From the NCBI RefSeq assembly GCF_000314895.2, contig NZ_CM001773.1:1849669-1913668 (forward strand): a DNA stretch of 64,000 nt, written 5' to 3'. The stretch comes from Providencia sneebia DSM 19967 (GTDB taxonomy: Bacteria; Pseudomonadota; Gammaproteobacteria; Enterobacterales; Enterobacteriaceae). Below, in pieces: positions 57,778 through 58,473 of the stretch (position 1 is the stretch's first letter; every line of letters starts with the position of its first letter). A program made the position numbers and the translations under genes. Under the pieces are notes generated by a model. That model ran no database searches. It was not told the origin of the DNA and saw nothing but the letters and a program-made list of their open reading frames with translations.

Positions 57778-58473
57778 ATGAATAACCAAGTTAATATAAT
57801 TATAATCGATGATAATTCTATTCTTCTCCGAGGATTAACAACTATTTTTAGGCATCATAAAAGATGTAATGTTGTTACATCATTACCTATGTTAGAACAA
57901 GCCATTTCATGTAATCGCCAACATCATGCAGATATTATTTTAGTTAATAATGATACCTGCCAATTTGAATCTCTTAAAACATTACAAACGCTAAAACGAA
58001 CTCAACCTGAAACAAGGATCATTATTTATAATATTCGCCATTATAATGTGTTTTTAATGAAAGCGCTTGATGTTGGTATTTATGGAGCTTTAAGCTATAA
58101 AATCAGCATGGGTGAGTTAATTGAATCCATTCAGATAGTAAATGCCCATCGTAAAATTATTTCTCCCGATATTGCTCAACTTATTGCATTAAAACGCATT
58201 TGTCAGCATGAAAACTTGGATTTATATGAGCTGTTATCAACGAGAGAGTTAGAGATCATGTTGTTAATCACTCAAGGTGTCACAGTAAAAGACATTGCTC
58301 ATCATCTGAAATTAAGTTCAAAAACGGTAAATACATACCGATATCGAATGTTTAGTAAACTTAATATCCGTAGTGATGTAGAATTAACTCATATAGCTAT
58401 TAATAATGGGTTAATCTCAACAAAGCAGGATTTATTAGAGTGCCAGAACAGTTTGAGCCAAAAACTTTTTTAA
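57778..58473 (+). CDS. uvrY: UvrY-like regulator with degenerate receiver
   Basis: UvrY/GacA partners BarA and activates csrB/csrC small RNAs. The 231-aa product keeps the LuxR-type HTH of UvrY (LSTRELEIMLLITQGVTVKD, LSSKTVNTYRYRMFSKLNI, VELTHIAINNGLI). The receiver keeps the acidic pair DD at 11-12 but the phosphoacceptor Asp is Asn 57 (ADIILVNNDTC), the switch Thr is Asn 85 (RIIIYNIRHYN) and the conserved Lys is Tyr 107 (GALSYKIS). So it is probably not regulated by phosphorylation. It is in the usual place, overlapping uvrC by 34 bases. Confidence 0.9.
   Translation: MNNQVNIIIIDDNSILLRGLTTIFRHHKRCNVVTSLPMLEQAISCNRQHHADIILVNNDTCQFESLKTLQTLKRTQPETRIIIYNIRHYNVFLMKALDVGIYGALSYKISMGELIESIQIVNAHRKIISPDIAQLIALKRICQHENLDLYELLSTRELEIMLLITQGVTVKDIAHHLKLSSKTVNTYRYRMFSKLNIRSDVELTHIAINNGLISTKQDLLECQNSLSQKLF

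What the first reader, a model, noticed from the sequence alone, without database searches (positions are those of the whole stretch)
57778..58473. UvrY ortholog with a pseudo-receiver domain
Seen: the phosphoacceptor Asp is Asn 57, the switch Thr is Asn 85 and the conserved Lys is Tyr 107, while the acidic pair (DD 11-12) and the LuxR HTH are intact. Known: UvrY/GacA needs Asp phosphorylation by BarA to activate csrB/C RNAs. Inference: here the regulator is uncoupled from BarA, either constitutively active, controlled by another ligand, or replaced by a second canonical UvrY elsewhere. The uvrC overlap shows it is the positional ortholog, not a random paralog.
Basis: partly seen in the sequence, partly recalled or inferred. 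Interest (0 to 1): 0.72.

Follow-up and report, generated by a model that had tools for sequence, protein, structure and literature searches.

The report
Kinase-less UvrY with a dead receiver
In Providencia bacteria and close relatives a well-known signal switch seems to have lost its sensor and its phosphate-accepting site, yet the regulator protein and its apparent target, a small regulatory RNA gene, are still there, so the switch probably now works in another way.

Summary
The gene at 57778-58473 is the positional UvrY ortholog of a Providencia genome: the phospho-acceptor Asp is Asn57, the switch Thr Asn85, the Lys Tyr107; receiver fold and LuxR HTH are kept. All 24 Providencia genomes tested lack this Asp (14 Asn, 10 Ser), as do the Moellerella, Arsenophonus and Proteus sequences seen; Morganella lost other active-site residues. 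Photorhabdus, Xenorhabdus and the other Enterobacterales sampled are canonical. The gene is under purifying selection (dN/dS 0.15 receiver, 0.10 HTH); no second UvrY was found. The BarA sensor domain was found in no genome of these five genera; in the window's genome the barA site beside rlmD is an empty 482 bp. The expected target persists: beside syd a UvrY-type palindrome lies about 150 bp upstream of a conserved promoter and a predicted 187-213-nt GGA-rich RNA, a shrunken csrB that Rfam misses, in 11 of 11 Providencia genomes where I located the place. CsrA is kept. Best reading: a two-component switch turned into a phosphorylation-independent activator of a miniature csrB, probably set by UvrY amount. 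DNA binding and expression are untested. New variant of a known kind.

The parts
57778..58473 (+). uvrY positional ortholog, 231 aa, pseudo-receiver plus LuxR-type HTH
57796..58131 (+). receiver domain (Pfam Response_reg, residues 7-118), predicted (beta-alpha)5 fold intact
57808..57813 (+). acidic pair D11-D12, kept here (DD in 22 of 24 Providencia genomes; DN and DG once each)
57946..57948 (+). AAT, Asn57 in place of the phospho-acceptor Asp, at the end of predicted strand beta3 (53-57)
58030..58032 (+). AAT, Asn85 in place of the switch Thr
58096..58098 (+). TAT, Tyr107 in place of the conserved Lys
58231..58398 (+). GerE/LuxR DNA-binding domain (residues 152-207); 44 of the 62 positions 151-212 are invariant in 24 Providencia genomes
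58440..60272 (+). uvrC, overlapping uvrY by 34 bases; marks the positional ortholog

Best explanation
In the lineage of Providencia, Moellerella, Arsenophonus, Proteus and (with a different set of losses) Morganella, the sensor kinase BarA was lost and UvrY's receiver lost the chemistry for Asp phosphorylation, but UvrY was not discarded. SHOWN by sequence: a degenerate but intact and selected UvrY in Providencia; no recognisable BarA sensor domain; a UvrY-type palindrome at a nearly fixed distance from a conserved promoter and a short GGA-rich RNA gene at the csrB position beside syd (not located in Morganella); CsrA present. INFERRED: UvrY binds that palindrome without phosphorylation, probably as a dimer that forms constitutively, and activates this miniature csrB, whose RNA titrates CsrA; output would follow UvrY amount (and perhaps IHF and the CsrA feedback known for E. 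coli) instead of the short-chain carboxylic acids that BarA senses in E. coli.
For: Asp absent in 24 of 24 Providencia genomes and in 35 of 35 Providencia-type, 2 of 2 Moellerella and 68 of 68 Proteus-type protein clusters, against D-D-D-(S/T)-K in 127 of 127 other listed UvrY clusters (clusters under 150 aa left out). Purifying selection: median dN/dS 0.147 receiver (167 of 276 pairs usable), 0.098 HTH (264 of 276). BarA sensor domain PF09984: 0 of 24 Providencia against 23 of 36 other genomes; 0 of 16 entries of Providencia, Moellerella, Arsenophonus, Proteus and Morganella (Moellerella apparently entered twice) against 5 of 5 of Photorhabdus, Xenorhabdus, Hafnia and Yersinia. Empty barA site. 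Palindrome TGTRRGN6CYYACA 21-34 nt beyond the end of the Syd match in 11 of 11 Providencia genomes located; ten of the places were found by synteny, not by the motif. It occurs once in 1.064 Mb of this genome and 10 times in 1.419 Mb from ten others, always at this place, arm-swapped control 0 and 0. Box to -35: 147 bp here, 150-151 in ten other Providencia, 151 in Moellerella, 151-152 in two Proteus, 152 in Photorhabdus. Hairpins covary. CsrA in 42 of 42 entries. No second UvrY.
Against: E. coli UvrY has an almost absolute need for phosphorylation to bind csrB in vivo (PMC4682653, passages), so function without it must be gained, not assumed. No expression, binding or phenotype data. The palindrome arms drifted in Providencia (TGTAAG to TGTAGG); a stricter consensus with up to 2 mismatches was hardly more common than its reversed control in 13 Providencia genomes (54 against 42 forward sites), and of the Providencia loci it gave only G001's lay at syd (list cut). 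RF00018 does not recognise the RNA. In single-sequence minimum-energy folds the GGA motifs sit in loops unevenly (0 of 4 in G001 to 4 of 5 in G000). Box-to-promoter spacing could not be measured in Arsenophonus and one Xenorhabdus (false promoter matches). The csrB place was located in 11 of 24 Providencia genomes and in no Morganella. PF09984 tests the sensor domain only; a BarA with another sensor is not fully excluded. In the named Arsenophonus (L129) the uvrY frame ends inside the HTH.
Confidence: 0.62

Rival explanations
1. The pseudo-receiver has gained a new direct input: a small ligand, a partner protein or a redox switch controls dimerisation. The window protein has Cys30, 19 residues after D11 in the alpha1-beta2 loop, near where redox-controlled orphan regulators carry their Cys.
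For: The receiver is kept under selection; ten receiver positions are invariant in 24 Providencia genomes but absent from six canonical UvrYs. The review PMC12632262 (passages) describes ligand-bound and Cys(DD+19) redox-controlled pseudo-receivers.
Against: Cys30 is in 11 of 24 Providencia genomes; 12 have Tyr, 1 Phe. No ligand pocket was tested. Dimerisation alone would also keep the receiver under selection.
Confidence: 0.25
2. UvrY in these bacteria no longer regulates csrB; it was recruited to other genes, and the palindrome and short RNA are remnants or serve another regulator.
For: RF00018 does not recognise the RNA and the palindrome arms changed in Providencia.
Against: In 12 aligned promoters 9 of 12 palindrome arm positions are invariant while most flanks diverge; near-rigid spacing; no other such palindrome in the 2.48 Mb of 11 Providencia genomes examined; covarying hairpins and a terminator.
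Confidence: 0.1
3. Slow pseudogenisation: UvrY is dispensable and decaying after loss of BarA.
For: Real decay exists elsewhere: HTH-only or frame-broken copies beside uvrC in three other genomes (L166, L168, L172), and in the named Arsenophonus endosymbiont L129 the frame ends inside the HTH. Receivers diverged differently in Providencia, Proteus and Morganella.
Against: A frame spanning receiver and HTH in 24 of 24 Providencia genomes (two end about ten residues earlier) and dN/dS far below 1 in both domains; overlap with uvrC alone would not conserve the HTH.
Confidence: 0.06
4. Another kinase or acetyl phosphate still phosphorylates the protein on a neighbouring residue such as D59.
For: D11 is kept in 24 and D12 in 22 of 24 genomes; position 59 is acidic in 23 of 24.
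Against: Position 59 is V in one genome and S in one cluster; the switch Thr is N in 23 and S in 1 of 24, the Lys is lost in 24 of 24. In Proteus the acidic pair, the Asp and the Lys are all gone, with only Ser (66) or Ala (2 of 68) at the switch position.
Confidence: 0.04

Closest known systems
UvrY/SirA/GacA response regulators (E. coli BarA-UvrY-CsrB; PMC4682653)
   Same: Place (overlaps uvrC), NarL/FixJ architecture, near-identical HTH core, csrB-position target with an 18-bp palindrome upstream, CsrA present
   Different: No phospho-Asp, switch Thr or Lys; no recognisable BarA; predicted csrB RNA far shorter than the 356-position Rfam model; palindrome arms partly TGTAGG; score below the family's curated cut-off
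Pseudo-receiver / aspartate-less receiver regulators (PMC12632262, PMC4395418)
   Same: Receiver recognised by Pfam, key residues missing, no partner kinase found
   Different: Here the change can be placed inside a known pathway: canonical orthologs in relatives, a missing kinase with an empty site, and an apparent target. UvrY and GacA do not occur in the main text of either paper (text search)
CsrB/RsmB RNAs (Rfam RF00018)
   Same: Position beside syd, UvrY palindrome upstream, several GGA motifs in consensus hairpins, intrinsic terminator
   Different: Predicted 187-213 nt with 4-6 GGA in Providencia; below RF00018 detection
VraR, LiaR, RcsB, EvgA (solved NarL/FixJ-type regulators)
   Same: Best structural matches of the predicted model
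   Different: These keep the Asp phosphorylation site (recalled); about 20% identity

Membership tests
UvrY/SirA/GacA (orthology) | Place directly upstream of and overlapping uvrC | tested here: met
   Overlap 58440-58473; a UvrY match upstream of uvrC in 78 of 80 named loci
UvrY/SirA/GacA (functional equivalog) | Score over the curated cut-off of NF007018 | tested here: not met
   171.9 bits against 280, though still the best of 26 families
UvrY/SirA/GacA (functional equivalog) | Phospho-acceptor Asp, switch Thr/Ser and Lys | tested here: not met
   N57, N85, Y107
UvrY/SirA/GacA (functional equivalog) | Cognate hybrid kinase BarA/GacS | tested here: not met
   Sensor domain PF09984 0 of 24 Providencia; empty site beside rlmD in this genome. 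A BarA with another sensor domain was not excluded
UvrY/SirA/GacA (functional equivalog) | Activation of csrB through an 18-bp palindrome | tested here: inconclusive
   Palindrome and RNA gene present; binding and activation not tested
Pseudo-receiver response regulators | Recognised as a receiver by a domain model | tested here: met
   Response_reg 45.8 bits against 30.2
Pseudo-receiver response regulators | Lacks key residues for phosphotransfer | tested here: met
   Three of five key residues changed
Pseudo-receiver response regulators | Activity without Asp phosphorylation | not testable with these tools
   Needs biochemistry
CsrB/RsmB RNA (for the RNA beside syd) | Gathering score of RF00018 | tested here: not met
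   No CsrB match in this genome or at the locus; of six loci only Photorhabdus matches, 64.4 bits against 71
CsrB/RsmB RNA (for the RNA beside syd) | Several GGA motifs in hairpins, terminator, place beside syd, UvrY palindrome | tested here: met
   (GGA loops by consensus and covariation; single-sequence folds vary). A model from 11 Providencia and Moellerella finds the Arsenophonus copy, not used in building it, at the same place (28.8 bits, E 0.0002), but not the two Proteus copies, and gives an off-place match of 24.9 bits in a Xenorhabdus locus
CsrB/RsmB RNA (for the RNA beside syd) | Binds and sequesters CsrA | not testable with these tools
   Needs biochemistry

The most novel reading that the evidence does not exclude
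A whole lineage of enterobacteria has converted the Gac/Csr two-component switch into a one-component system: BarA deleted, UvrY turned into a pseudo-receiver that takes a new direct input (ligand, partner or redox), and csrB shrunk to a miniature with 4-6 GGA motifs and a re-tuned palindrome.
Probability: 0.3. Interest if true: 0.78.

Novelty: new variant of a known kind. Interest (0 to 1): 0.64.

Why it matters
How pseudo-receivers are switched on and off is called a mystery in a 2025 review (PMC12632262, abstract). Here one arises inside one of the best-studied bacterial signalling pathways, with near relatives that keep the ancestral form, a missing kinase with an empty site, and an apparent single target, so the loss of phospho-control can be tested step by step. 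It also bears on opportunistic pathogens (Providencia, Proteus, Morganella), where an ordinary BarA-UvrY-CsrB circuit would be expected and does not seem to be there. And in Providencia, Moellerella, Arsenophonus and Proteus it suggests that the lack of an Rfam csrB match is a detection failure, not a loss.

Tried and rejected
First idea: joint loss of BarA and CsrB. RF00018 was negative in 24 of 24 Providencia and in the 16 entries of the five genera. Rejected after a palindrome search fell on the syd-csrB place in Proteus, Moellerella, Arsenophonus and one Providencia, and after locating the same place by synteny in ten further Providencia genomes including the window's own.

RF00084 (CsrC): only a 20.5-bit fragment in this genome, under cut-off, in a search whose controls also gave weak matches in unrelated bacteria; not pursued.

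Redox Cys30 as a genus-wide switch: only 11 of 24 Providencia.

Single origin of the losses: the UvrC tree (28 rows) needs two changes, with one origin in 38% of bootstrap trees; unresolved.

A first estimate of RNA ends cut several transcripts too early; replaced. One search read minus-strand loci on the wrong strand; replaced. Guessed places for syd failed. Structure had one helix misplaced; corrected before use.

Literature: searches listed no paper whose title or shown abstract deals with UvrY, BarA or csrB of Providencia or Proteus; one search was on pseudo-receivers. Only passages were seen of PMC4682653, PMC12632262 (also its abstract), PMC12910134, PMC9861413, PMC5568370, PMC5322557 and PMC11547657; PMC4395418 was text-searched with no occurrence. 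PMC5322557 reports BarA fragmented in one whitefly Hamiltonella endosymbiont. Most subscription papers are not in the library.

Full report
WHAT IS THERE. The ORF at 57778-58473 (+) encodes 231 aa. The bases give D11 D12, N57, N85 and Y107 where canonical UvrY has D, D, D, T and K. Both domains are recognised by Pfam. AlphaFold2 gives an intact (beta-alpha)5 receiver with N57 at the end of beta3, and an HTH (mean pLDDT 86.0, pTM 0.63; residues 218-231 under 50); solved NarL/FixJ-type regulators such as VraR, LiaR, RcsB and EvgA are the nearest folds. The public cluster identical to it is 194 aa long and starts at Met38, and no receiver domain is assigned to it (P0001).

WHERE IT LIES. The genome (3.88 Mb, 99.97% complete) is a Providencia: a same-genus genome has a contig of 11,931 bases, equal in length to Providencia heimbachae NZ_LXEW01000012, and the nearest named protein clusters are Providencia. 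uvrC overlaps uvrY by 34 bases.

HOW FAR THE CHANGE EXTENDS. In 24 of 24 Providencia genomes the Asp is lost (14 N, 10 S), the Thr is N in 23 and S in 1, and the Lys is lost in all. Of the uvrC places of 80 named genomes, 78 have an upstream UvrY match; 72 are D-D-D-T-K, 1 (L132) is broken in frame and left out, and 5 are degenerate: Providencia heimbachae, Moellerella, an Arsenophonus endosymbiont and two Morganella; Tatumella ptyseos and Rosenbergiella have none. Moellerella and Arsenophonus have E-D, N, S and I or V; in the named Arsenophonus (L129) the frame ends inside the HTH, in a second, unnamed one (L138, assigned by similarity) it does not. Morganella keeps D and T but has N plus a non-acidic residue for the acidic pair and Q for Lys (6 of 6 sequences). 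Four Proteus genomes lack the acidic pair, the Asp and the Lys, with S (3) or A (1) at the switch position; the genus is named through (contig length 74,783 equals Proteus myxofaciens ATCC 19692). Protein clusters agree: Providencia-type 0 of 35, Moellerella 0 of 2 and Proteus-type 0 of 68 with the Asp; 127 of 127 others have it. Photorhabdus and Xenorhabdus are canonical.

NOT A DECAYING GENE IN PROVIDENCIA. The frame spans both domains in all 24 (two end about ten residues earlier). Median dN/dS is 0.147 for the receiver (167 of 276 pairs usable), 0.205 for the linker (111) and 0.098 for the HTH (264) (Nei-Gojobori, saturated or near-identical pairs dropped). Decay looks different: three other genomes have an HTH-only or frame-broken copy beside uvrC (L166, L168, L172).

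NO SECOND UvrY, NO BarA FOUND. The next best match in the genome is 26% identical. barA stands beside the gene I name rlmD in Photorhabdus and Hafnia. In the window's genome the order mazG-relA-rlmD is followed by 482 bp without an ORF of 90 aa or more and then dgt (gene names from recall of the sequences). Kinase-like matches to BarA elsewhere in the fetched quarter of the genome are partial, 26-37% identical. CsrA is in 42 of 42 entries.

THE TARGET SURVIVES. Rfam's CsrB model found nothing in Providencia or in the other four genera. In 16 loci that the CsrB model does hit, the palindrome TGTRAGN6CTYACA (after TGTAAGN6CTTACA of PMC4682653, passages) is exact in 9, has one mismatch in 4 and is missing in 3, mostly about 200 bp upstream. 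A search with a palindrome consensus hit the syd-csrB place in Proteus (2), Moellerella, Arsenophonus and one Providencia; in Providencia at large that stricter consensus was hardly above its control (54 against 42 forward sites in 13 genomes). I then found syd by synteny in ten further Providencia genomes, the window's own included. The palindrome TGTRRGN6CYYACA begins 21-34 nt beyond the end of the Syd match in 11 of 11; in the window's genome it is TGTAGGAAATAACCTACA at G000:C1:1181787, a change of both arms. The box-to-promoter distance is 147 bp here and 150-151 in ten others, 151 in Moellerella, 151-152 in Proteus and 152 in Photorhabdus; the script found no proper promoter in Arsenophonus and one Xenorhabdus. 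The relaxed pattern occurs once in 1.064 Mb of this genome and 10 times in 1.419 Mb from ten others, always at this place; the arm-swapped control gives 0 and 0. The stretches were partly chosen to hold syd, and the pattern was relaxed after seeing Providencia sites.

THE RNA. Predicted transcripts are 187-213 nt with 4-6 GGA in 11 Providencia, 198 nt with 5 in Moellerella, 353 nt with 5 in Arsenophonus, 196 nt with 8-9 in two Proteus, and 224 nt with 12 in Photorhabdus. Single-sequence folds place the GGA in loops unevenly. Three hairpins that carry GGA and a terminator, drawn from the consensus, are supported by covariation: 92.5% of cells paired (shuffled mean 88.3), 16 cells with a change on both sides (shuffled mean 4.8; 0 of 500 reach it), against 17-47% paired when the partners are slid; 'further pair types' is not above the shuffles (355 of 500). 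The rows are closely related, so this is support, not proof. A model from 11 Providencia and Moellerella scores the window genome's copy at 81 bits (a training row) and nothing else above 22.2 bits in 1.064 Mb. It finds the Arsenophonus copy, not used in building it, at the same place (28.8 bits, E 0.0002), but not the two Proteus copies; a Xenorhabdus match of 24.9 bits lies off its csrB, which limits the weight of scores in that range.

MECHANISM. Shown: the regulator, the missing kinase domain, the palindrome, the promoter and the RNA gene. Inferred: binding without phosphate, activation, CsrA titration. E. coli UvrY needs phosphate almost absolutely in vivo (PMC4682653), so this ortholog, if active, must have gained independence, most simply by constitutive dimerisation, which PMC12632262 names as an apparent route for many pseudo-receivers (passages). 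Whether a new input replaced BarA is open.

LIMITS. The csrB place was located in 11 of 24 Providencia genomes, the window's included; in the other 13 it was not located, and none was found empty. Morganella's place was not reached. The UvrC tree does not decide between one loss and two.

Noticed in passing
G000:C1:2624682-2624837 and 2662600-2662755: Two extra CsrA-family genes, 38 kb apart, besides the best-scoring one at C1:1378751; 13 of 24 Providencia genomes have more than one CsrA match. Possibly carried on mobile elements.
   Followed up: no
window 61446-62334 (-), beside tRNA-Gly, tRNA-Cys and tRNA-Leu at 61031-61300: A phage-type integrase split over two overlapping frames (catalytic part and SAM-like N-terminal part), next to three tRNA genes: probably the remnant of an integrated element.
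   Followed up: partly
L267 12210-15709 (G000) against L199 221-1135 (G001): The gene next to csrB differs: a conserved 304-aa ORF in G001 and six other Providencia genomes, two ABC-transporter-like genes (named by eye) in the window's genome.
   Followed up: no
L189 and L190 around position 1501 (Morganella): A one-mismatch UvrY palindrome TGTGAGAGATCTCTTAAA kept in two Morganella genomes upstream of a 462-aa permease-like ORF: a candidate UvrY target there.
   Followed up: no
L121 (Tatumella ptyseos) and L127 (Rosenbergiella collisarenosi): No UvrY match upstream of uvrC, although 3.5 kb of upstream DNA is held.
   Followed up: no
   Followed up: no
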